A DNA stretch of 64,000 nucleotides from Mesorhizobium sp. LNHC252B00 (GTDB taxonomy: Bacteria; Pseudomonadota; Alphaproteobacteria; Rhizobiales; Rhizobiaceae): contig NZ_AYWO01000020.1 of the NCBI RefSeq assembly GCF_000502955.1, positions 27,374 to 91,373 of the forward strand, written 5' to 3'. Under the pieces are notes generated by a model. That model saw nothing but the letters and a program-made list of their open reading frames with translations. It was not told where the DNA came from and searched no databases. Below, in pieces: positions 39,445 to 48,458 of this stretch; the first letter of the stretch is position 1; each line of letters starts with the position of its first letter. A program made the position numbers and the translations under genes.

Positions 39445-40383
39445 TCACCAGTGCCAGGCACCCTGTCCAAGGGCAGCAACCGCGTCAACGATCCGGGTAA
39501 AACTCGCGCGGGCGCGGCCGACCGTGTGCCGGGCCCTGAGATAGCCGTGCACCAGGCCCGGTTCCTCGAACCAGTATGCCCGTCCGCCGGCCGCGACGAT
39601 GCGGTCGCGATAGGCTCCGCCGTCGGACGATAGCGGATCGCATTGCGCGGTGATCAGTACGGTCGGCGGCAGGTTGGCGAAATCGGCGTCGGCAAGCGGC
39701 GACTGCGTGATGTCCCCGGTGCCGTCTCGCCCGCCGGTGCGGATGTTCTTGTAGAATTCGAGATCGCGCATGGTCAGCATCGGCGCTTCGGCATGCCTGA
39801 GATAGGATCCCTTCGACCGGTCGCCGCCAAGACCGGGATAGATCAGCACCTGGCCGATCGGCCGTTTCGCATGGCCGCGTGTCGCGTGGCTGACCGCGGC
39901 GGCAAGATTGCCGCCGGCGCTGTCGCCGCATAGAAGAATTGGGTGGCTGCGGGCGATGCCAGCCCATTCGAAGGCGCTCATCACGTCGTCGAAGGCCGAT
40001 GGATGCAAGTGCTCCGGCGCCAGCCGGTAATCGACCGAGATCACCTCGTAGCCGGTGCGGTCGCAGAGTTCGGCACAGACATCGTCATGGCTGTTCAGGC
40101 CGCCGAGAATGAAGCCGCCGCCATGGAAATACAGCACCGTCACGGCTGCTTGGCGTGCGCTTCGGTAAATGCGGATCGGGATCTCGTGCGTTCGCGTTGC
40201 AATGGCGGAGGTTTCGACCGCGACGCCTTGCGGGTAGCCGGCAAAGAATTCGCGGCACATGCGGTCGTAGATGTCGCGCTGCTGCGCGATCGTGTAATCG
40301 ATCGTGTCGGGCGGATAGTAGGAATTGGTCCGCTCGATGAAAGCCCAGGTCTCGGCGTCGATGAGCGTTTTGTAGTCGGTCAT
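39445..40383 (-). CDS. HSL-type α/β-hydrolase/esterase
   Basis: The 312-residue esterase of the hormone-sensitive-lipase family has the oxyanion motif HGGG at 87-90, nucleophile Ser155 in GDSAGG, and a C-terminal GLVHGYLR with the catalytic His. The start is ATG 40383; the frame upstream runs through a RIME-like repeat and is not coding. It lies downstream of the carnitine-type operon on the same strand but is separated by 205 bases and the repeat. A role in that pathway is possible but unproven. Confidence 0.88.
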   Translation of the reverse strand: MTDYKTLIDAETWAFIERTNSYYPPDTIDYTIAQQRDIYDRMCREFFAGYPQGVAVETSAIATRTHEIPIRIYRSARQAAVTVLYFHGGGFILGGLNSHDDVCAELCDRTGYEVISVDYRLAPEHLHPSAFDDVMSAFEWAGIARSHPILLCGDSAGGNLAAAVSHATRGHAKRPIGQVLIYPGLGGDRSKGSYLRHAEAPMLTMRDLEFYKNIRTGGRDGTGDITQSPLADADFANLPPTVLITAQCDPLSSDGGAYRDRIVAAGGRAYWFEEPGLVHGYLRARHTVGRARASFTRIVDAVAALGQGAWHW

Positions 40384-40406
40384 GGGCACTGGAAGGGCAG
40401 AGCCCG

Positions 40407-40566
40407 GGCACCCCCCTCTGGCCTGCCGGCCATCTCCCCCGCAAGGGGGGAGATTGGCAGCGTTGATCGCGGTGCACTTCTTGCAACGTTGACGGTTGGC
40501 GAAAGCAGAAATGACATCCAATCTCCCCCCTTGCGGGGGAGATGCCCGGCAGGGCAGAGGGGGGTG
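40407..40566. repeat. RIME-like inverted repeat, copy 2
   Basis: Same family as 34401-34566: a left arm with CCCCCCTCTGGCCTGCCGG and GGGGGGAGATTGGC, a right arm as the reverse complement, and interior GTTGGCGAAAGCAG. It lies between the esterase and the CaiD-like gene. Confidence 0.85.
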
Positions 40567-40588
40567 TGACGGAACGCCATCGTTCCCA

Positions 40589-41371
40589 TTACTTCCCCTT
40601 CCACACCGGATCGCGCTTTTCCGCAAAAGCGCGAAAACCTTCCATATTGTCTTCGGAGCCGTAGAGCGCATCGACCGTCGGCAGCTGCCGGCGCGTCACT
40701 CTGTTCATCGCGTCCTGGAAAGTCAGCGCTTCGGCCACGCGCGCCGTTTCCTTGATCGCTGCAAAGACCAGCGGCGGTCCGCCGGCGAGCAGCCGGGCGA
40801 TCTCCCAGACGCGGTCCTCAAGCTTTTCCTTGGGCAGCACTTCGTTGACCAGGCCCCAGCGATGCGCTTCGGCGACATCCATCCAGCGGCCGGTGAGCAG
40901 AAGGTCCATGGCGACATGATAGGGAATGCGCTTCGGTAGCTTGATCGTTGCCGCGTCGGCCAGCGTGCCGGCGCGAATTTCGGGCAGCGCGAAGGAGGAA
41001 TGGTCGGAGGCGTAGATGAGGTCGCAGGACAGCGCCAGCTCGAAGCCACCGCCGACCGCCATGCCGTTGACGCAGGCGATGACGGGCTTGTTGAGGTCGC
41101 GCAGTTCCTGCAGGCCGGCAAAGCCGCCGACGCCATAGTCGCCGTCGACCGCATCGCCGCCGGCAGCCGCCTTCAGGTCCCAGCCGGCGCAGAAGAACTT
41201 GTCGCCGGCGGTCTTGACGATGGCGACGCGCAAATTGGGATCGTCGCGGAATGCCTTGAAGGTTTCGCCCATCAGCCGCGAGGTCTTCAGGTCGATGGCG
41301 TTGGCCTTGGGCCGGTCGAGCGTGACCTCCAGGATGGTGCCCTCGCGGCGGGTCGAAATGACGTCAGACAT
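40589..41371 (-). CDS. caiD: Carnitinyl-CoA dehydratase-like enoyl-CoA hydratase
   Basis: The 260-residue crotonase-fold protein keeps both catalytic glutamates: Glu111 in GGGFELA and Glu131 in FALPEIRAG. It should hydrate crotonobetainyl-CoA to carnitinyl-CoA, or a similar enoyl-CoA. ATG 41371 overlaps the CoA ligase gene by eight bases. The neighbouring carnitine dehydrogenase, acyl-CoA dehydrogenase and CoA ligase make the carnitine reading likely; specificity is an inference from this context. Confidence 0.82.
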   Translation of the reverse strand: MSDVISTRREGTILEVTLDRPKANAIDLKTSRLMGETFKAFRDDPNLRVAIVKTAGDKFFCAGWDLKAAAGGDAVDGDYGVGGFAGLQELRDLNKPVIACVNGMAVGGGFELALSCDLIYASDHSSFALPEIRAGTLADAATIKLPKRIPYHVAMDLLLTGRWMDVAEAHRWGLVNEVLPKEKLEDRVWEIARLLAGGPPLVFAAIKETARVAEALTFQDAMNRVTRRQLPTVDALYGSEDNMEGFRAFAEKRDPVWKGK

Positions 41372-43448
41372 TCTTCTTGTCTCCCAGCACCAGCAGCGCA
41401 TCGGCGATCCAGGCGCCCTTGCCCTCCGTGCAGACGATCAGCGGGTTGATGTCGAGTTCCTCGATCTCGCCGGCATTCTCCTGCACGAAGGCGGCAATGC
41501 CCGAGATGGCGTCGATGGCAGCCTGAACATCGGCCTTCGGCCGGCCGCGATAGCCTTCGAGCAGCGGATAGAGTTTCAGGCCGTGCAACGCCGCCTCGAT
41601 GTCATCGCGGGTCGCTGGCAGCATTAGCGTGACGCTGTCGCGCAGCAGCTCGACCAGCACGCCGCCGGTGCCCAGCGTCATCACCGCGCCGAACATCGGG
41701 TCGCGGGTGAAGCCGACGATCAGCTCGGCGACGCCGTCGCGCACCATGCGCTCGACATAGAGCCCGGTGCCGAGCGGCAAGAGGTCATGCGCAGCGGTGC
41801 TGACGGACTCGGCGTCTTTGAGGTTGAGCTGCACCGCGCCGACCTCGGATTTGTGGGTGACACCCAGCGCCTTCAGCGCCACCGGGAAGCCGAGCGCCAT
41901 CGACGAGATCACCGCCTCGACCGCATTGGCGGCGCGCTCGCCTTTCGGCACCGGCAGGCCGGCCTTGATGAGGCGGGATTTCGCCTCGGCCTCGTCGGGC
42001 GTGACGTGTTCGCCGACAGGCGCGCCGGAGGCGGAGGTGTCGATCGGCTGCGCCTGCGGCTCAGCCCAAGCCCAACCGATGAAGGCCGCTGCCCCGGCTG
42101 CATCCATGGCTTCGGAAATCCCGAACAGCGGCACCATGCCGCGCGCCATAAGGCCGGCAGTGTATTCCTCCGGCAGGTTCTCCGGCAGCGAGGAGACGAT
42201 GGCACCCTGCGCCTTGTTGGTCTTAAGCGCAGATTCGAAGGCACGCAGCGTCGCCCACCAGTCGGTGTCCGAGCAGCGGTCGGGGCGCGGGAAGTCGAGC
42301 ACCAGCATGTTGAGGTCGAACCCGCCCGACACCATGGCGGTGAAGGTGGCGGTCATCGCCGGCTCATTGTTCCAGATGAAGGTGTGATAGTCCAACGGAT
42401 TGGCCACCGCGACCAGCGGCCCGAGCGTCGATTTGACATGGGCACGGTGGGTGTCGCTGAGCACCGGGAAATTGACCCAGCGGCCTTCGGCGCTGTCGGC
42501 CATGACCGAAGCCTCGCCGCCCGAGCAGCTCATCGATGACAGCCTATAGCCGGGCAACGGTCCGGTGATATGCAGCAGCTTCAGCGCCTCGATGAAGGCG
42601 GGGATGGAATCGACGCGCGCTATGCCCAGCCGCCTCAGGAAGGCGCCCGATGCGGCGTCCGACCCTGCCAGCGAGGCGGTGTGCGAGACGGTCGCTTGCC
42701 GCGCCTGTTCGGAACGGCCGACCTTCATGGCGATGATCGGCTTCTTCAACTCGCGGGCCCTGGCCGCCAGCCGTTCGAAGCCGGCTACGGAATCGAAGGC
42801 TTCGATGTGCAGGCCAAGCGAGGTGACCCGCTCGTCCTCGATCAGGCCGAGTGCCATTTCGGACAGGCCGGTCTGCGCCTGGTTGCCGGCGGTCATCAGG
42901 AAGGCGATCGGGAGGCCGCGCTTCTGCATCGTCATGTTGATGGCGATGTTCGACGACTGGGTGATGATAGCGACACCTTTGCCGCCGTCGGCCAGTCGGA
43001 TGCCGCCATGCTGGTCGGGCCACAGAAGTGCGCCGTCGGCATAGTTGATCAGGCCGTAGCAATTCGGGCCGATGATCGGCATCTGGCCCGCCGCCGCGAC
43101 CAGCTCGGCCTGCAGCCGCTCGCCGTCGTCGTCATAGGCCTCGGTCTCGAGGAAGCCGGCGGCAAAGCAGACTGCACCGCCGGCGCCGCGCTCGGCCAGC
43201 GCCTTGACCACCTCGATGGTCAAGTGCCGGTTGACGCCGACGAAGGCGGCGTCCGGCGCGCCGGGAAGATCGGCGACGGAGCGATAGGCCTTTCGGCCGG
43301 CGACCTCTTCCTTGCTCGGATGCACCGGCCAGATCTCGCCGGCAAAACCCATCTTGATCGATTGCGCCACGACGACTGCGGCCTGAGCGCCGCCGAAGAC
43401 GGCAATCGATTTGGGGCGCAAAAGACGTTCGAGTTTATGCATGGTCAT
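41364..43448 (-). CDS. NDP-forming acyl-CoA synthetase-like CoA ligase
   Basis: The 694-residue fused α/β acyl-CoA synthetase of the ADP-forming type has an N-terminal CoA-binding domain (PKSIAVFGGAQ at about residues 12-22), succinyl-CoA-synthetase-like domains with SHTASLAGSD, and a C-terminal ATP-grasp half. It forms a CoA thioester of a small acid. Between the CaiD-like hydratase and the acyl-CoA dehydrogenase, the best substrate guess is γ-butyrobetaine, carnitine or crotonobetaine. The true substrate is not shown by the sequence. Confidence 0.82.
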   Translation of the reverse strand: MTMHKLERLLRPKSIAVFGGAQAAVVVAQSIKMGFAGEIWPVHPSKEEVAGRKAYRSVADLPGAPDAAFVGVNRHLTIEVVKALAERGAGGAVCFAAGFLETEAYDDDGERLQAELVAAAGQMPIIGPNCYGLINYADGALLWPDQHGGIRLADGGKGVAIITQSSNIAINMTMQKRGLPIAFLMTAGNQAQTGLSEMALGLIEDERVTSLGLHIEAFDSVAGFERLAARARELKKPIIAMKVGRSEQARQATVSHTASLAGSDAASGAFLRRLGIARVDSIPAFIEALKLLHITGPLPGYRLSSMSCSGGEASVMADSAEGRWVNFPVLSDTHRAHVKSTLGPLVAVANPLDYHTFIWNNEPAMTATFTAMVSGGFDLNMLVLDFPRPDRCSDTDWWATLRAFESALKTNKAQGAIVSSLPENLPEEYTAGLMARGMVPLFGISEAMDAAGAAAFIGWAWAEPQAQPIDTSASGAPVGEHVTPDEAEAKSRLIKAGLPVPKGERAANAVEAVISSMALGFPVALKALGVTHKSEVGAVQLNLKDAESVSTAAHDLLPLGTGLYVERMVRDGVAELIVGFTRDPMFGAVMTLGTGGVLVELLRDSVTLMLPATRDDIEAALHGLKLYPLLEGYRGRPKADVQAAIDAISGIAAFVQENAGEIEELDINPLIVCTEGKGAWIADALLVLGDKKNV

Positions 43449-43506: not shown

Positions 43507-44670
43507 CTAAGCCCCGAACGGACGCAGCAGCGCCCGCGAAATAATATGTCGCTGAATCTCCGAAGTGCCTTCCCAAATTCGCTCGACCCGGGCGTCGCGC
43601 CAGATGCGCTCCAGCGGCAAATCGTCCATCAGCCCCATGCCGCCATGGATCTGGATCGCTTCATCGGCAACAAAGGCGAGCATTTCGGTGGCCTTCAGCT
43701 TGGCCATGGCCATGTCCTGGTCGGTGACGGTGCCCTGATCGTACTTCCAGCCGGCTTCGAACACCATCAGGTCGGCGGCCTTCAGTTCGGTCGCCATGTC
43801 GGCAAGCTTGAACGACACGCCCTGGAACTTGCCGATCTGCTGGCCGAACTGCTGGCGCTGCGCGGCATATTCCACCGCATGGCCAAGCGCCCGCTCGGCG
43901 CGGCCGAGACAGGTGGCGCCGACCTGCAGCCGAGTGGCGCCGAGCCAGGAATTGGCGACATCGAAGCCCTTGTGCACCTCGCCCAGAACCTGGGAGGCCG
44001 GCAAGCGGCAATCGTCGAATTCGAGGATGGCATTGGTGTAGCCGCGATGCGAGACGTTGCGGTAGCCGTCGCGGACGGTGAAGCCTTTGGTCCCTTTGTC
44101 GACAAAAAAGGCGGTGATCTTCTTGCGCTTGCCGCGCGGCGAATCCTCTTCGCCGGAAGCCATGAACACGATGGCGAAGTCGGCGAGGTCGGCGTGGGAG
44201 ATAAAATGCTTGGTGCCGTTGAGCACCCAGTCGTCGCCATTCTGCACGGCCGTCGCCTTCATACCGCGCAGGTCGGAGCCGGCGCCCGGCTCGGTCATCG
44301 CCAGGCAGTCCCATTTCTCGCCGCGGATGCAGGGGAACAAATATTTCTCGCGCTGCTCGGGTGTGCCGGCCAAGAGGATGTTGGAGGGCCGCGCCACGCA
44401 GGTCCAGTGCAACGCATAATTGGCACGGCCGAGCTCTTTCTCGTAGAGCAGCCAGGTCACCGTATCCAGGCCCGCGCCGCCGACATCGGCCGGCATGTTG
44501 GCGGCATAGAGCCCGGCCTCGATCGCCTTGGCCTTGATTTGCTCGATCAACTCGCGGCGCAGCACGCCGGTGCGCTCGACCTCGCGCTCATGCGGGTATA
44601 GCTCGTTCTCGACGAACGCCTTCGTCGTCTCGACGATGAGCTTCTGTTCCTCCGACAACCCGAAATCCAT
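43507..44670 (-). CDS. Acyl-CoA dehydrogenase, CaiA/butyrobetainyl-CoA type
   Basis: The 387-residue FAD enzyme has the acyl-CoA dehydrogenase signatures AMTEPGAGSDLRG, QFGQQIGKFQGV and EAIQIHGGMGLMD. Glu367 in WEGTSEIQR is the expected catalytic base. It oxidises a saturated acyl-CoA to the enoyl-CoA. Four bases separate it from carnitine dehydrogenase, so γ-butyrobetainyl-CoA to crotonobetainyl-CoA is the most economical assignment. General fatty-acyl substrates cannot be excluded. Confidence 0.85.
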   Translation of the reverse strand: MDFGLSEEQKLIVETTKAFVENELYPHEREVERTGVLRRELIEQIKAKAIEAGLYAANMPADVGGAGLDTVTWLLYEKELGRANYALHWTCVARPSNILLAGTPEQREKYLFPCIRGEKWDCLAMTEPGAGSDLRGMKATAVQNGDDWVLNGTKHFISHADLADFAIVFMASGEEDSPRGKRKKITAFFVDKGTKGFTVRDGYRNVSHRGYTNAILEFDDCRLPASQVLGEVHKGFDVANSWLGATRLQVGATCLGRAERALGHAVEYAAQRQQFGQQIGKFQGVSFKLADMATELKAADLMVFEAGWKYDQGTVTDQDMAMAKLKATEMLAFVADEAIQIHGGMGLMDDLPLERIWRDARVERIWEGTSEIQRHIISRALLRPFGA

Positions 44671-44674
44671 GATC

Positions 44675-45778
44675 TCAGCCCTTCTTCTTGCCGGTCTTTT
44701 TCTTCGGCTTTTCGGCTTTCTTCACCGGCTTCAACGTCTTGGCCTTCTCGGCCGCCTTGGAGGCCACAGGCTTTTTGGCCGCTAGCTTGGCCAGTTGCCT
44801 GGTATAGTCCTTGTGCAAGGCACCGGCACCCCAGCCCTTGCCTTTGTTCTGCTTCGACAGCGCGTCCATGATCGCAACCAGATTGTCGTCGCGGATCTTT
44901 TCCAGCTCGCGGATCGACAGCCCATGCGCCTGGTCGTCCGACTGCGTGGCGATCAGGTCGACCAGTTCATCGTTGAACTCCGGCACGTCCATCAGCTTGG
45001 TCCATGGCCATTTCAAGCACGGCCCGAACTGGGCCATGAAGTGGCGCATACCGGCCTCGCCCCCTGCGACGCGATAGACCTGGAACATGCCCATCTGCGC
45101 CCAGCGCAGGCCAAAGCCGAAGCGCATGATGTCATCGAGTTCCTCGACGGTGCAGATGCCGTCCTTTATTAGCCACAGCGCCTCGCGCCATGCCGCTTCG
45201 AGCAGGCGGTCGCCGACGAAGGCTTCGATCTCCTTGCGGATCACCACCGGCTTCATGCCGATCGAGGCATACATTTCCTTGGCGACCTCGATCGCCTCTG
45301 GGAAGGTCTGTTCGCCGCCGACGATCTCGACAAGCGGCAAGAGGTAAACGGGGTTGAACGGATGCCCGACGACCAGCCGCTCCGGGTGCTTCTTCATCGC
45401 CACCTGCATGTCGGTCGGCTTGATGCCCGAGGTCGAGGAGCCGACAATGGCGTTTGCCGGCGCATGGGTATCGATCTCGGCCAGCACGCGGTGCTTGAGA
45501 TCGAGCCGCTCAGGCACGCTTTCCTGGATGAAGTCGGCATCGGCAACCGCCTCGGCGATGGTCTTGGCAAAGGTCAGTTTGCCCTCTTTCGGCAAGCCGC
45601 CAGGCACCATCTGCTTGTAGGCGCGGCGCGCGCCTTTCATCACTTCGCCAACCTTGCGCGACGCTTCGGGATCGGGATCGAAGATCGACACGTCGATGCC
45701 GTTGAGCAACAGGCGCGCCACCCAGCCGGCGCCGATGACGCCGCCACCGATGGCGGCCGCCTTGTTGATGATGCTCAT
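44675..45778 (-). CDS. lcdH: L-carnitine 3-dehydrogenase with Lys-rich tail
   Basis: The 367-residue NAD-dependent 3-hydroxyacyl-CoA-dehydrogenase-fold enzyme has the dinucleotide motif IGGGVIGAGW (10-19), catalytic His139 in VVGHPFNPVYLLPLVEI and partner Glu151. It oxidises L-carnitine to 3-dehydrocarnitine. Some rhizobial homologues carry a fused thioesterase domain; here that part is absent and about 38 residues of Lys/Ala-rich low-complexity tail close the protein. It overlaps the HD-domain gene by four bases, and the BKACE gene lies one gene upstream, which strongly supports the assignment. Confidence 0.9.
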   Translation of the reverse strand: MSIINKAAAIGGGVIGAGWVARLLLNGIDVSIFDPDPEASRKVGEVMKGARRAYKQMVPGGLPKEGKLTFAKTIAEAVADADFIQESVPERLDLKHRVLAEIDTHAPANAIVGSSTSGIKPTDMQVAMKKHPERLVVGHPFNPVYLLPLVEIVGGEQTFPEAIEVAKEMYASIGMKPVVIRKEIEAFVGDRLLEAAWREALWLIKDGICTVEELDDIMRFGFGLRWAQMGMFQVYRVAGGEAGMRHFMAQFGPCLKWPWTKLMDVPEFNDELVDLIATQSDDQAHGLSIRELEKIRDDNLVAIMDALSKQNKGKGWGAGALHKDYTRQLAKLAAKKPVASKAAEKAKTLKPVKKAEKPKKKTGKKKG

Positions 45779-46404
45779 GCGGAAGCTCCGGTTCTTGTCT
45801 TGGCTGTTGCGGGATCGATGAGAGGCACGCGCTCGCCGGCGCGGATCACCGGGGGATCGTAAGCCTTGCGGGCAAACACTTCGAGCACGAAGGGCCGGAA
45901 GAATTCGATCGGCAGCGTGTCGTAGTCGGGGTCGAAGCTCGACTGGTCCCAGCGCTCGCAGAACTGATCGCAATCATCGAAATAGGCGTGGCCGGCGAAG
46001 CGGTCGCGCGCATGGCGGTTGCCGCCCAGATGATGGGCATAGTAGAGCCGCTGGAAATCGCCGTGCTTTTCCACCACCCAGGTGCATTGTTCGCGTACGA
46101 AAGGCTTCAGGATCGAAGCGGCATATTCGTCGTGATTGTAGGGCGCGTATATGTCGCCGATATCGTGCAGCAGCGCGCACGCGATCCAGTCGGTATCGGC
46201 GCCGTCGCGCCAGGCGCGGGTCGCCGCCTGCAGCGAATGGCCGAGCCGGGTGATCTTGTACCCCGACAGACCCGCGTCGAGCTGAACCAGCGCGTCGAGC
46301 AGCCGCTCGCCGGTCCTTGCCGCATAGTCGATTTCATGCGCGGTCAGGAACTCATAGTCGTCCCGGTCGCCATCCTTCATCGCCGTGAATTTTACGGTAG
46401 TCAT
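45775..46404 (-). CDS. HD-domain protein with PhnZ/TmpB-type diiron ligands
   Basis: In this 209-residue protein every ligand expected for HD-domain mixed-valence diiron oxygenases is seen in order: His56 (RLGHSLQAA), His80 and Asp81 (ALLHDIGD), His90 (YNHDEYAASIL), His113 (VEKHGDFQRLYY) and Asp152 (CERWDQ). Spacing follows PhnZ (His34, His58, Asp59, His80, His104, Asp161, from memory). PhnZ, TmpB and MIOX oxidatively cleave C–P or C–C bonds. The gene is locked between BKACE and carnitine dehydrogenase, with a four-base overlap to the latter. A hydrolase role is also possible; function is unassigned. Confidence 0.8.
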   Translation of the reverse strand: MTTVKFTAMKDGDRDDYEFLTAHEIDYAARTGERLLDALVQLDAGLSGYKITRLGHSLQAATRAWRDGADTDWIACALLHDIGDIYAPYNHDEYAASILKPFVREQCTWVVEKHGDFQRLYYAHHLGGNRHARDRFAGHAYFDDCDQFCERWDQSSFDPDYDTLPIEFFRPFVLEVFARKAYDPPVIRAGERVPLIDPATAKTRTGASA

Positions 46405-46426: not shown

Positions 46427-47344
46427 TTATGCCGCTATCGGCGCCCGCTTGGTGAGGTTGAGCTTCTTGCGCACTTCCTCCGGGCCGATGATCCTGGCGC
46501 CCAGATTGGTGACGATGCTGGCGGCTCGTTCGACCAACTGCGCATTGGTCGCCAGCACGCCCTTGTCGAGCCACAGATTGTCTTCCAGGCCGACCCGGAC
46601 ATTGCCGCCGGCCAGCACGGCGGCGGCGGCATAGGCCATCTGGTTGCGGCCGATGGCGAAGGCCGACCAGTTCCAGGTCGACGGCACGTTGTTGACCATT
46701 GCCATGAAGGTGTTGAGGTCGTCGGGCGCCCCCCACGGCACACCCATGCATAGCTGCACGAGCGCGTCGGGATCGAGCACCTTTTCCTCGACCAGCTGCT
46801 TGGCGAACCACAGATGGCCGGTATCGAAGGCCTCGATCTCCGGTTTGACGCCGAGCGCCGTCATCATGCCGCCCATGGCGCGCAGCATGCCGGGCGTGTT
46901 GGTCATGACATAGTCGGCCTCGGCGAAATTCATGGTGCCGCAATCGAGCGTGCAGATTTCCGGCAGGCACTGGCGCACATGTTCCATGCGGTTGGTGGCG
47001 CCGCCCATGTCGGTGCCTTTTTCGTTGAGCGGCAGCGGTGCTTCCGGCGAGCCGAAGACCATGTCGCCGCCCATGCCGGCGGTCAGGTTCAGGATGACGT
47101 CTACTTCCGCCTCGCGAATGCGCTCGGTGACTTCGCGATAGAGATGCACGTCGCGCCTGGGCTTGCCGGTTTCAGGGTCACGCACATGGCAGTGGACGAT
47201 CGCGGCGCCGGCTTTGGCCGCATCGATGGCCGAATCGGCGATCTGCTTGGGCGAGCGCGGTACATGCGGGCTGCGATCCTGCGAGCCGCCGGATCCGGTC
47301 ACGGCACAGGTAATGAAGACCTCACGGTTCATCGCAAGCGGCAT
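46427..47344 (-). CDS. BKACE-family dehydrocarnitine cleavage enzyme
   Basis: The 305-residue DUF849/BKACE protein has zinc-binding His51 and His53 in VHCHVRDPETG. BKACE enzymes condense a β-keto acid with acetyl-CoA to release acetoacetate and a new CoA thioester; next to carnitine dehydrogenase the substrate should be 3-dehydrocarnitine, giving betainyl-CoA. The start is ATG 47344, preceded by GGAGGAGA; the frame upstream is not coding. It is the first gene of the operon, divergent from the regulator. Confidence 0.9.
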   Translation of the reverse strand: MPLAMNREVFITCAVTGSGGSQDRSPHVPRSPKQIADSAIDAAKAGAAIVHCHVRDPETGKPRRDVHLYREVTERIREAEVDVILNLTAGMGGDMVFGSPEAPLPLNEKGTDMGGATNRMEHVRQCLPEICTLDCGTMNFAEADYVMTNTPGMLRAMGGMMTALGVKPEIEAFDTGHLWFAKQLVEEKVLDPDALVQLCMGVPWGAPDDLNTFMAMVNNVPSTWNWSAFAIGRNQMAYAAAAVLAGGNVRVGLEDNLWLDKGVLATNAQLVERAASIVTNLGARIIGPEEVRKKLNLTKRAPIAA

Positions 47345-47369
47345 GGAACTCTCCTCCGATAGAAACACT

Positions 47370-47418
47370 ATGCATGTCGCCCAAAAGTGGGAACCGGTTT
47401 TGGGACAACGACATGCAC
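47370..47418. repeat. Palindromic repeat in the carnitine regulatory gap
   Basis: Runs from ATGCATGTCGCCCAAAAGTG to GGGACAACGACATGCAC between the divergent BKACE and regulator genes. A shortened copy lies just after the regulator at 48461-48492. Confidence 0.75.
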
Positions 47419-47477
47419 AAAGACCAACCAACAATGACCGACTTGCCGGAAACTGTTTTGCGTTTTACGAAGCTTCC

Positions 47478-48458
47478 ATGACGAAAAGCGAAAAACCAAC
47501 GATCTTTCGTGCCGAACGCCTGCCACTCAGGGTGACGCTGCTGGTGTTTTCCGGCTCGTCGATCATGTGCGTCGCGTCGGCGGTCGATCCGTTGCGCGCC
47601 GCCAACCGCATCTGCGGCGAGACGCTGTTCGATTTCAAGCTGGTCTCGCTGACCGGCGAGGCTCCGGTCACCACCTGCGGCCTGCCGGTGGCGGTTAGCG
47701 GCCGTTTCGATGCGGGTGAGCCAACCGACGTTCTTGTCGTCGTCGCCGGCTTTGGCACCCAGAACTATGCGACATCGGGGCTGTTGTCAGGCCTGCGCCG
47801 GGCAGCGCGGACAGCACGGGCTTGCGGCGGTGTCGAAGCGGGCACCTGGCTGGTGGCGCGCGCCGGCTTGCTGGAAGGGCGCAGCGCCACCACCCACTGG
47901 GAGGACATGGAGGACTTTTCCTCGGCCTTCCCCGGCGTCGATGTGCGCCCGGACCGCTACGTCATCGACGGGCCGGTATTCACGTCAGGCGGCGCGTCGC
48001 CGACCTTCGACCTGATGCTGCATCTCATTCGCACGCGGCTGGGCATGGCCGTGGCGCTCGATGTCGCGAGCGTCTTCATCTACGACCAGGCACGTGCCGC
48101 GACCGACGCCCAGCCGCTGGTCTCGCTCGGTCGGCTCGATGGCTACGATCCGCGCCTGGCGCAAGCCATCCGGCTGATGGAATCGCATGTCGATCAGCCG
48201 CTGACCATAGAAGCGGTGGCCAAACGCGCCGGGGTGACGGCGCGAACCTTGGAAAGCATCTTTCGCAAGTCGATCGGCGAGACGCCGGGCGCCTATTATC
48301 TCAGGCTGCGCCTGGGTGCCGCGCGCCGGCTGGTGGTCGACACCAGGGTGGCGATGGCCGATATTGCCGGGCGGACCGGATTTTCGTCCGCCGCGGCGTT
48401 TTCGAGGGCGTTTTCAAGGGCTTTCGGCGAAGCGCCGGTCAGGCTGCGCCGGGGCTGA
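47478..48458 (+). CDS. cdhR: AraC-family GATase-like regulator of CdhR type
   Basis: The 326-residue protein has an N-terminal class-I glutamine-amidotransferase-like domain (about 20-190) whose usual nucleophile position reads GVEAGTWLVARAG without the Cys, and a C-terminal pair of AraC HTH motifs (about 225-325, VAKRAGVTARTLESIFRKSIG). ATG 47478 is the family start. It is divergent from BKACE with 133 bases between. CdhR of Pseudomonas, the carnitine-catabolism activator, has this architecture and neighbourhood, so activation of this operon by carnitine or a derivative is likely. Confidence 0.85.
   Translation: MTKSEKPTIFRAERLPLRVTLLVFSGSSIMCVASAVDPLRAANRICGETLFDFKLVSLTGEAPVTTCGLPVAVSGRFDAGEPTDVLVVVAGFGTQNYATSGLLSGLRRAARTARACGGVEAGTWLVARAGLLEGRSATTHWEDMEDFSSAFPGVDVRPDRYVIDGPVFTSGGASPTFDLMLHLIRTRLGMAVALDVASVFIYDQARAATDAQPLVSLGRLDGYDPRLAQAIRLMESHVDQPLTIEAVAKRAGVTARTLESIFRKSIGETPGAYYLRLRLGAARRLVVDTRVAMADIAGRTGFSSAAAFSRAFSRAFGEAPVRLRRG

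What the first reader, a model, noticed from the sequence alone, without database searches (positions are those of the whole stretch)
45775..46404. PhnZ/TmpB-like diiron oxygenase candidate inside a carnitine operon
Seen: all six metal ligands (His56, His80, Asp81, His90, His113, Asp152) occur in order with PhnZ-like spacing, and the gene is locked between BKACE and carnitine dehydrogenase with a four-base overlap. Known: PhnZ and TmpB oxidatively cleave hydroxy-aminoethyl phosphonates, TmpB on a trimethylammonium compound, and MIOX cleaves a C–C bond. Inferred: this protein may oxidise a trimethylammonium hydroxy compound such as carnitine or a by-product, a step not in the accepted pathway.
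Basis: partly seen in the sequence, partly recalled or inferred. Interest (0 to 1): 0.82.

Follow-up and report, generated by a model that had tools for sequence, protein, structure and literature searches.

The report
Unassigned diiron oxygenase in carnitine operon
A small iron-enzyme-like gene of unknown job sits inside the carnitine-breakdown operon of a Mesorhizobium; its predicted shape and its relatives suggest an oxygen-using bond-cutter for hydroxylated trimethylammonium compounds, a step missing from the textbook pathway, but its substrate is not yet known.

Summary
The gene is real, on the minus strand (46404-45775, 209 aa), between BKACE and carnitine dehydrogenase (CDH), overlapping CDH by ATGA. 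All six HD-oxygenase ligands are present: H56, H80, D81, H91, H114, D153 (three were off by one). An AlphaFold2 model (pLDDT 86.5) matches PhnZ (Z 17.1), TmpB (16.4) and MIOX (11.1); every other entry shown is at 8.6 or less. It passes no curated PhnZ/TmpB/Phn-HD cut-off, lacks their YxxE loop, and has Asp where PhnZ and TmpB have His after the HD motif: a separate subfamily. Homologues occur in 109 of 385 alphaproteobacterial genomes. BKACE-HD-CDH holds in all 80 close loci kept and is linked at least twice, probably three times, on the tree; yet 20 of the 30 best CDH loci lack the gene. Elsewhere it directly follows hydroxylases: a TmpA-sister clade with a trimethyllysine-hydroxylase-type Asp (11 loci), PhyH enzymes (13), or 2OG-oxygenase-like phage genes (4). 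Best reading: an HD diiron oxygenase cutting the C-C bond beside the hydroxyl of a trimethylammonium compound feeding this operon (hydroxytrimethyllysine to gamma-butyrobetaine, or carnitine to glycine betaine). Chemistry and substrate are inferred, not shown.

The parts
45775..46404 (-). HD-domain oxygenase-like protein, 209 aa (ligands H56, H80, D81, H91, H114, D153)
46427..47344 (-). BKACE family protein (3-dehydrocarnitine cleavage in the accepted pathway), directly upstream, 22-nt gap
   Evidence: Pfam PF05853 327.7 bits; start placed at the MPLAMNREVF Met
44675..45778 (-). carnitine 3-dehydrogenase without the fused thioesterase domain, Lys-rich tail; its ATG overlaps the HD stop by 4 nt
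   Evidence: NCBIfam NF005716 593.5 bits, cut-off 592, covering 1-337 of 495 positions; sequence
43507..44670 (-). acyl-CoA dehydrogenase (candidate gamma-butyrobetainyl-CoA dehydrogenase; inferred from context)
   Evidence: Pfam PF00441/PF02770/PF02771; no NCBIfam cut-off passed, best acryloyl-CoA reductase 299 of 640 bits, crotonobetainyl-CoA dehydrogenase 188.7 of 540
41364..43448 (-). ADP-forming acyl-CoA ligase type protein
   Evidence: Pfam PF13549/PF13607/PF13380
40589..41401 (-). enoyl-CoA hydratase, best model crotonobetainyl-CoA hydratase (315.8 bits, cut-off 500)
39445..40671 (-). alpha/beta hydrolase (PF07859), last gene of the run; the ORF start given is too long
   Evidence: a homologue lies behind the operon in relatives
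47163..48458 (+). AraC-type regulator, best model GbdR (202 bits, cut-off 480), divergent; the ORF start given is too long

Best explanation
It is an HD-fold, probably mixed-valent diiron oxygenase of a subfamily separate from PhnZ, TmpB and MIOX. By analogy with them, one iron binds the hydroxyl of a substrate of the type R3N+-...-CH(OH)-X, O2 binds the second iron, the hydrogen on the hydroxylated carbon is removed, and the neighbouring C-C bond is cut, leaving a betaine carboxylate. In many other lineages a hydroxylase encoded just upstream would make the hydroxyl; in this operon the product enters carnitine / gamma-butyrobetaine breakdown. My specific pick (about 0.3) is a 3-hydroxy-alpha-amino-acid betaine such as 3-hydroxytrimethyllysine cut between C2 and C3 to gamma-butyrobetaine plus a glyoxylate-level imine; that would supply the ligase, dehydrogenase and hydratase of this operon. 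Shown: gene, ligands, predicted fold, conservation, gene contexts. Inferred: iron, O2 chemistry, substrate class, bond cut.
For: Fold: PhnZ Z 17.1, TmpB 16.4, MIOX 11.1, every other entry shown at or below 8.6 (a second look at Foldseek's own 498 best chains); Foldseek's ten matches with E<=0.001 are all PhnZ or TmpB. Ligands invariant in 68 of 68. Phosphatase Arg absent. Hydroxylase on the same strand within 150 bp upstream: TmpA-like in 11 loci (L004, L176, L180, L187, L188, L191, L195, L198, L199, L326, L343) and PhyH in 13 (L162, L163, L168, L171, L175, L178, L189, L197, L271, L327, L330, L332, L334), and a 2OG-oxygenase-like gene (by eye) in 4 phage-like contigs. On the 69-row tree the TmpA-like label needs 4 changes and PhyH 5 (one search gave 5 for TmpA-like because it also counted the divergent BBOX-like gene of L183); sisters L197 (PhyH) and L199 (TmpA-like) share a divergent LysR gene of one cluster: a swap of hydroxylase for what looks like one substrate. 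The adjacent TmpA-likes plus four unlinked ones from HD genomes form one clade beside TmpA (SH-aLRT 100, quick tree), all 15 with Asp at TmpA N187 / BBOX N191, the position of TMLH Asp231 thought to hold the substrate's alpha-ammonium (PMC7764450, passages). RidA-like gene (Pfam PF14588/PF01042) upstream of the pair in L191 and L195. L343 has an Asp-type hydroxylase-HD pair beside BKACE-CDH-thioesterase, a BBOX-like gene and a choline-type binding protein.
Against: The window's own genome shows no BBOX/TmpA/TMLH-type match (neither search rang in the 14 control genomes, though rang in 27 of 33 genomes) and no PhyH partner at E<=1e-10, so the hydroxylated substrate would have to be imported or made otherwise. 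Of six genomes with BKACE-HD-CDH checked for the TmpA/BBOX family, only G161 has an Asp-type copy; G457, G539 and G549 have Asn types and G000 and G488 none. 20 of the 30 best-scoring CDH loci of the family run BKACE-CDH without HD, so the step is dispensable. The Asp clade is sister to TmpA, and three other Asp-bearing proteins (L356, L367, L368) lie outside it. None of my hydroxylase, BKACE or CDH references lies within 5 kb in 29 of 60 nearer loci (L148-L207) and 54 of 60 further loci (L243-L302). The RidA link rests on two loci of one genus.
Confidence: 0.55

Rival explanations
1. Carnitine itself is the substrate: L-carnitine + O2 -> glycine betaine + glycolate, the carbon analogue of TmpB (X = CH2COO- in place of PO3), a one-step bypass of CDH and BKACE.
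For: In the window's genome carnitine, or carnitinyl-CoA from the hydratase, is the only evident beta-hydroxy trimethylammonium compound, since no partner hydroxylase was found. Fixed place between BKACE and CDH in 80 of 80 close loci kept; further links to BKACE-CDH in L203 and L343. By CIP reasoning (R)-carnitine and TmpB's (R)-substrate have the same handedness (inference).
Against: Redundant with the two enzymes beside it; the family's TmpA-like partners look unlike gamma-butyrobetaine hydroxylases (Asp for Asn), and a partner-linked HD (L327, PhyH) is 73-74% identical to this one, which suggests a shared substrate that is not carnitine; carnitine has no hydroxyl on the second carbon as in MIOX.
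Confidence: 0.2
2. A metal-dependent hydrolase (phosphatase or phosphodiesterase), as its 'HD domain' / 'phosphohydrolase' annotation suggests, perhaps a housekeeping or repair enzyme for a phosphorylated or CoA intermediate.
For: Pfam HD 23.4 bits, cut-off 22; some hydrolases such as YqeK also have extra histidines between HD and the last Asp (PMC8177086 legends).
Against: Fold ranks PhnZ, TmpB and MIOX far above hydrolases; no Arg three before the HD His in 68 rows; recurrent pairing with oxygenases.
Confidence: 0.12
3. A TmpB-like phosphonate oxygenase that makes glycine betaine and phosphate from a hydroxylated trimethylammonium phosphonate.
For: Upstream partners are TmpA-like (334-422 bits with NF049936, cut-off 400, in the 9 of 11 adjacent partners scanned); a periplasmic-binding-type protein (Pfam PBP_like_2; PstS-like by eye) follows the pair in L180 and a homologue in L187.
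Against: Asp replaces the His after HDxG of PhnZ and TmpB in 68 of 68 rows (that this His contacts the phosphonate is recalled, not from a call); partners replace TmpA's phosphonate-contact N187 by Asp (PMC9296572 passages); no YxxE loop.
Confidence: 0.08
4. Stand-in for the missing betainyl-CoA thioesterase of this operon, since it lies where cdhB lies in Pseudomonas (position recalled).
For: CDH here lacks the fused thioesterase domain.
Against: HD coexists with a thioesterase-fused CDH (4HBT_2) in L157 and L158 and with separate 4HBT_2 genes in L203 and L343; unfused CDH operons without HD show no gene between BKACE and CDH either; a stand-alone thioesterase homologue exists elsewhere in the genome (33% identity, E 2.1e-18).
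Confidence: 0.03

Closest known systems
PhnZ (2-amino-1-hydroxyethylphosphonate oxygenase, HD mixed-valent diiron oxygenase)
   Same: Fold (Z 17.1, 2.9 A over 153 residues), H..HD..H..H..D ligands, same 24-residue first spacing, hydroxylase partner in relatives
   Different: 23-27% identity in the structural alignments; no YxxE loop (LxGY); Asp for His after HDxG; not over the NCBIfam cut-offs
TmpB with TmpA (trimethylaminoethylphosphonate pathway)
   Same: Fold Z 16.4; relatives lie behind a TmpA-sister hydroxylase; quaternary-amine context
   Different: 21.7 bits against a cut-off of 300; partners carry Asp at TmpA N187; two loops shorter than in TmpB
MIOX (myo-inositol oxygenase)
   Same: Fold Z 11.1, diiron ligand set, cuts a C-C bond next to a hydroxyl
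   Different: Pfam MIOX 17.4 bits, cut-off 25; not found by profile search of the PDB at E<=1
Accepted carnitine pathway CDH-BKACE-betainyl-CoA thioesterase
   Same: The window operon holds CDH and BKACE
   Different: The HD gene is extra. Searches of the held open library: 'HD domain' with 'carnitine dehydrogenase' 0 papers; 'HD domain', 'carnitine', 'betaine' 3 papers, unrelated by title (listing only); 'PhnZ' with 'carnitine' 2 papers, passages unrelated. Most subscription papers are not in that library

Membership tests
[quoted passage not shown]
   H56, H80, D81, H91, H114, D153 in 68 of 68 rows
[quoted passage not shown]
   Z 17.1, 16.4, 11.1 against 8.6 or less for every other entry shown
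[quoted passage not shown]
   needs protein, EPR/Mossbauer and assays
PhnZ/TmpB subgroup | YxxE substrate loop | tested here: not met
   PhnZ Y24/E27 align without gaps to L46/Y49; position 49 is Y in 63, F in 3, C in 1, gap in 1 of 68
PhnZ/TmpB subgroup | curated NCBIfam score cut-offs (TIGR03276, NF052439, NF049941) | tested here: not met
   32.5/214.6, 25.5/300, 21.7/300 bits; ten relatives also far below, best 46.0, 31.3 and 42.5 bits
PhnZ/TmpB subgroup | adjacent Fe/2OG hydroxylase | tested here: inconclusive
   present in 24 relatives plus 4 phage-like loci, absent in the window operon and not found in its genome
MIOX (PF05153) | Pfam gathering score 25 | tested here: not met
   17.4 bits
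HD phosphohydrolases | Arg three residues before the HD His | tested here: not met
   A77 here; A 62, T 4, S 1, I 1 of 68, and A in 20 of 20 more (rule from PMC8177086 legends)
carnitine catabolic operon | constant company of CDH and BKACE | tested here: inconclusive
   80 of 80 loci kept, of 460 found; 15 of 37 HD genomes in the family sample; absent from 20 of the 30 best CDH loci

The most novel reading that the evidence does not exclude
A new HD diiron oxygenase subfamily that cuts carbon-carbon bonds in hydroxylated trimethylammonium compounds, for example 3-hydroxytrimethyllysine directly to gamma-butyrobetaine. With its Asp-type TmpA-sister hydroxylase it would form an all-oxygenase bacterial route from trimethyllysine into carnitine and glycine betaine, replacing aldolase plus aldehyde dehydrogenase.
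Probability: 0.3. Interest if true: 0.85.

Novelty: new variant of a known kind. Interest (0 to 1): 0.63.

Why it matters
Three HD oxygenases are listed as crystallographically and biochemically characterised in the 2020 review (PMC8177086 table): two for phosphonates, one for inositol; a 2023 review adds a Gimesia PhnZ and the fungal fusion PhoF, again for phosphonates (PMC10574752 passages). This subfamily occurs in 109 of 385 sampled alphaproteobacterial genomes, is annotated as 'HD domain-containing protein', 'phosphohydrolase' or 'inositol oxygenase family protein', and in part lies in betaine and carnitine gene clusters or behind hydroxylases. If the inference holds, it adds a C-C-cutting oxygenase step to quaternary-amine catabolism and makes a testable two-gene module.

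Tried and rejected
Thioesterase replacement: rejected because HD coexists with thioesterases. Simple TmpB function: unlikely, see the two Asp substitutions. D-carnitine or trimethylaminoacetone as substrate: considered; trimethylaminoacetone was seen in a Citrobacter study of carnitine growth (PMC12482172 passages), but as a ketone it offers no H-C-OH to attack. Phage records of INPHARED: no match. Ten paper searches; the original PhnZ and TmpA/TmpB papers are not held, so their details come from reviews or recall. PhnZ residues H62, K108 and R158 as phosphonate contacts are recalled only. That PDB 6zyk (best hit of the PhyH partner) is ThoJ, a beta-hydroxylase of dimethylhistidine, is recalled; the record says only 'Monooxygenase'.

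Limits of the counts. The position of L343 on the quick tree is unsure (long branch); changes on a tree do not tell gain from loss. L178, L184 and L188 dropped out of the residue counts because the ORF picker lost their HD frame; L013, L026 and L179 were left out of the tree, L242 too (near copy of L241), and L361 out of the hydroxylase tree (too short). In some searches the divergent BBOX-like gene of L183 was counted as a TmpA-like partner; one search recounts without it. Of about 140 match rows I fetched 89 stretches; the lower-scoring third was not examined. In the family sample G581, G473 and G392 were not fetched; by the coordinates their CDH lies on another contig (G581, G473) or gave no match (G392). 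The further loci (L243-L302) were screened only with my reference proteins, so hydroxylases of other kinds may be missed.

Full report
What is there. The finding's coordinates hold one gene on the minus strand, 46404..45775, 209 aa. It lies in a run of minus-strand genes: BKACE, HD protein, carnitine 3-dehydrogenase, acyl-CoA dehydrogenase, ADP-forming acyl-CoA ligase, crotonobetainyl-CoA-hydratase-like protein and an alpha/beta hydrolase, with a GbdR-like AraC regulator on the other strand. The HD stop and the CDH start share ATGA; a GGAGG precedes the HD start. Of the 80 genome contigs relatives kept (of 460 found), 77 are titled Mesorhizobium, up to 99% identical, so the host is most likely a Mesorhizobium.

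Ligands and fold. The six HD-oxygenase ligands are H56, H80, D81, H91, H114 and D153, invariant in 68 of 68 rows. The A1 profile (27 sequences) finds PhnZ (E 8.5e-12) and TmpB (E 7.2e-10) in the PDB. The AlphaFold2 model built from 24 sequences has pLDDT 86.5 and pTM 0.83. VIA-align gives PhnZ Z 17.1, TmpB 16.4, MIOX 11.1, then a tRNA processing enzyme 8.6 and HD hydrolases lower (it re-aligns Foldseek's own 498 best chains only). The residue three before the HD His, typically Arg in HD phosphohydrolases according to PMC8177086 (figure legends and table read), is Ala here and never Arg in 68 rows.

Not PhnZ or TmpB. NCBIfam scores are far below cut-offs (same for ten relatives). The YxxE loop described in PMC8177086 (section 1.4 read) is LxGY. 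PhnZ and TmpB carry His directly after HDxG; this family has Asp in 68 of 68 rows and in 20 of 20 more. Loops between D81 and H91 and between H114 and D153 are shorter than in TmpB (10 against 21, 39 against 57; counted).

Distribution and carnitine link. Matches: 109 of 385 genomes of the class (E<=1e-8), 37 of 199 of the family, 59 of 398 of the phylum sample (E<=1e-20). In the family sample, 15 of the 37 have BKACE and CDH around the gene (own genome, G457, G539, eleven in L148-L158, and L160 with a GDSL-type hydrolase gene between BKACE and HD), one (L159) has BKACE only. All 80 close loci kept have BKACE upstream and CDH downstream. Against this, 20 of the 30 best-scoring CDH loci run BKACE-CDH with no HD, two Mesorhizobium genomes of the phylum sample (G747, G750) lack it, and L161, 67% identical, has none of the carnitine references near it. 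On the 69-row tree the fifteen Rhizobiaceae-family operon copies form one clade (99/89) and L203, beside BKACE, CDH and a 4HBT_2 thioesterase, lies elsewhere: two changes. L343, from another class, adds a third, but its place on the quick tree is unsure.

Hydroxylase partners. In many other loci the HD gene directly follows a hydroxylase. Counting same strand and 150 bp or less upstream: of 60 loci L148-L207, 8 TmpA-like and 8 PhyH; of 20 loci L325-L344, 2 TmpA-like and 4 PhyH; of 60 further loci L243-L302, 1 PhyH; of 7 plasmid loci, 1 TmpA-like (L004). Of 5 viral contigs, 4 have the HD gene overlapping the end of a short 2OG-oxygenase-like gene; Pfam gave that gene no name in the two tested, and the type is read from its HxD...H pattern by eye. 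L003 has a fatty-acid-hydroxylase-type gene downstream. In 29 of the 60 nearer loci and 54 of the 60 further ones none of my hydroxylase, BKACE or CDH references lies within 5 kb. On the 69-row tree the TmpA-like label needs 4 changes and PhyH 5, and sisters L197 and L199 carry PhyH and TmpA-like respectively behind a divergent LysR gene of one cluster.

What the partners say about substrate. PMC9296572 (passages) names N187, N287 and R288 of TmpA as phosphonate contacts. All 11 adjacent TmpA-like partners have Asp at N187; R288 is Arg in 10 and Lys in 1. With four unlinked copies from HD genomes they form a clade of 15, SH-aLRT 100 on a quick tree, beside a TmpA clade that keeps Asn; three other Asp-bearing proteins (L356, L367, L368) lie outside it. 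PMC7764450 (passages) says that TMLH specificity is thought to come from Asp231 binding the alpha-ammonium, homologous to Asn191 of BBOX; my alignment puts TmpA N187 and BBOX N191 in one column. So both members of the pair differ from the phosphonate enzymes by a new Asp. This points to a substrate with an ammonium, perhaps an amino-acid end, rather than a phosphonate. A RidA-like gene precedes the pair in L191 and L195, two genomes of one genus, as an imine-releasing cut of a beta-hydroxy amino acid would want. L343 puts the Asp-type hydroxylase (422.5 bits with the TmpA model, over its cut-off of 400) and HD next to BKACE, CDH, a 4HBT_2 thioesterase, a BBOX-like gene (255 bits over a partial frame, cut-off 414.75) and a choline-type binding protein (257 of 379 bits): on paper a complete trimethyllysine-to-glycine-betaine set. 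This is inference.

The gap. The window's own genome shows no TmpA/BBOX/TMLH-type match and no PhyH partner at E<=1e-10. Of 21 genomes with BKACE-HD-CDH searched for the PhyH partner, 4 have a strong match (G464, G466, G161, G638; E below 1e-40), 3 a weak one and 14 none. Of six checked for the TmpA/BBOX family, only G161 has an Asp-type copy. Here the hydroxylated substrate must be imported, made by an unknown enzyme, or be carnitine itself, which is why direct carnitine cleavage stays as the main rival.

Verdict. Chemistry and substrate are unproven.

Noticed in passing
L239, L240, L241, L242 (viral contigs): Phage-like contigs with tail-type neighbours (by eye) carry a 178-184 aa relative of the HD protein overlapping the end of a short 2OG-oxygenase-like gene, so a hydroxylase-HD pair also travels in viruses of bacteria.
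   Followed up: partly
L343:6595-7833 and the 15-row clade: Asp-type hydroxylases sister to TmpA score near or above the NCBIfam TmpA cut-off (334-422.5 against 400 in 9 scanned) although the phosphonate-contact Asn is replaced; database names may be wrong for them.
   Followed up: partly
L257, L260, L262, L275: Tandem HD duplicates in some alphaproteobacteria (second copy 47-51% identical to my references), three of the four with PhyH-like genes nearby.
   Followed up: no
window 44675-45778: CDH lacks the thioesterase domain fused in some relatives and ends in a Lys-rich tail; a thioesterase homologue lies elsewhere in the genome (G000:C1:449426-449851, L303).
   Followed up: partly
L358, L359 (G457, G539): Two sister Mesorhizobium genomes carry close TmpA relatives (64% to 6npb) that score over the BBOX model's cut-off; the window's genome gave no match.
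   Followed up: no
L356, L367, L368: Bacterial BBOX-family proteins with a D-T-A-Y...H-T-D-G and N-N-x-D-R pattern that looks like trimethyllysine hydroxylase (resemblance recalled, not tested).
   Followed up: no
L186, L192 (1.2-1.3 Mb genomes): Streamlined small genomes keep the HD gene between a glutamine-amidotransferase/phosphoribosyltransferase (purF-like) and a glutamate-cysteine-ligase gene (Pfam for L186) and carry an unlinked Asp-type hydroxylase (L351, L352).
   Followed up: partly
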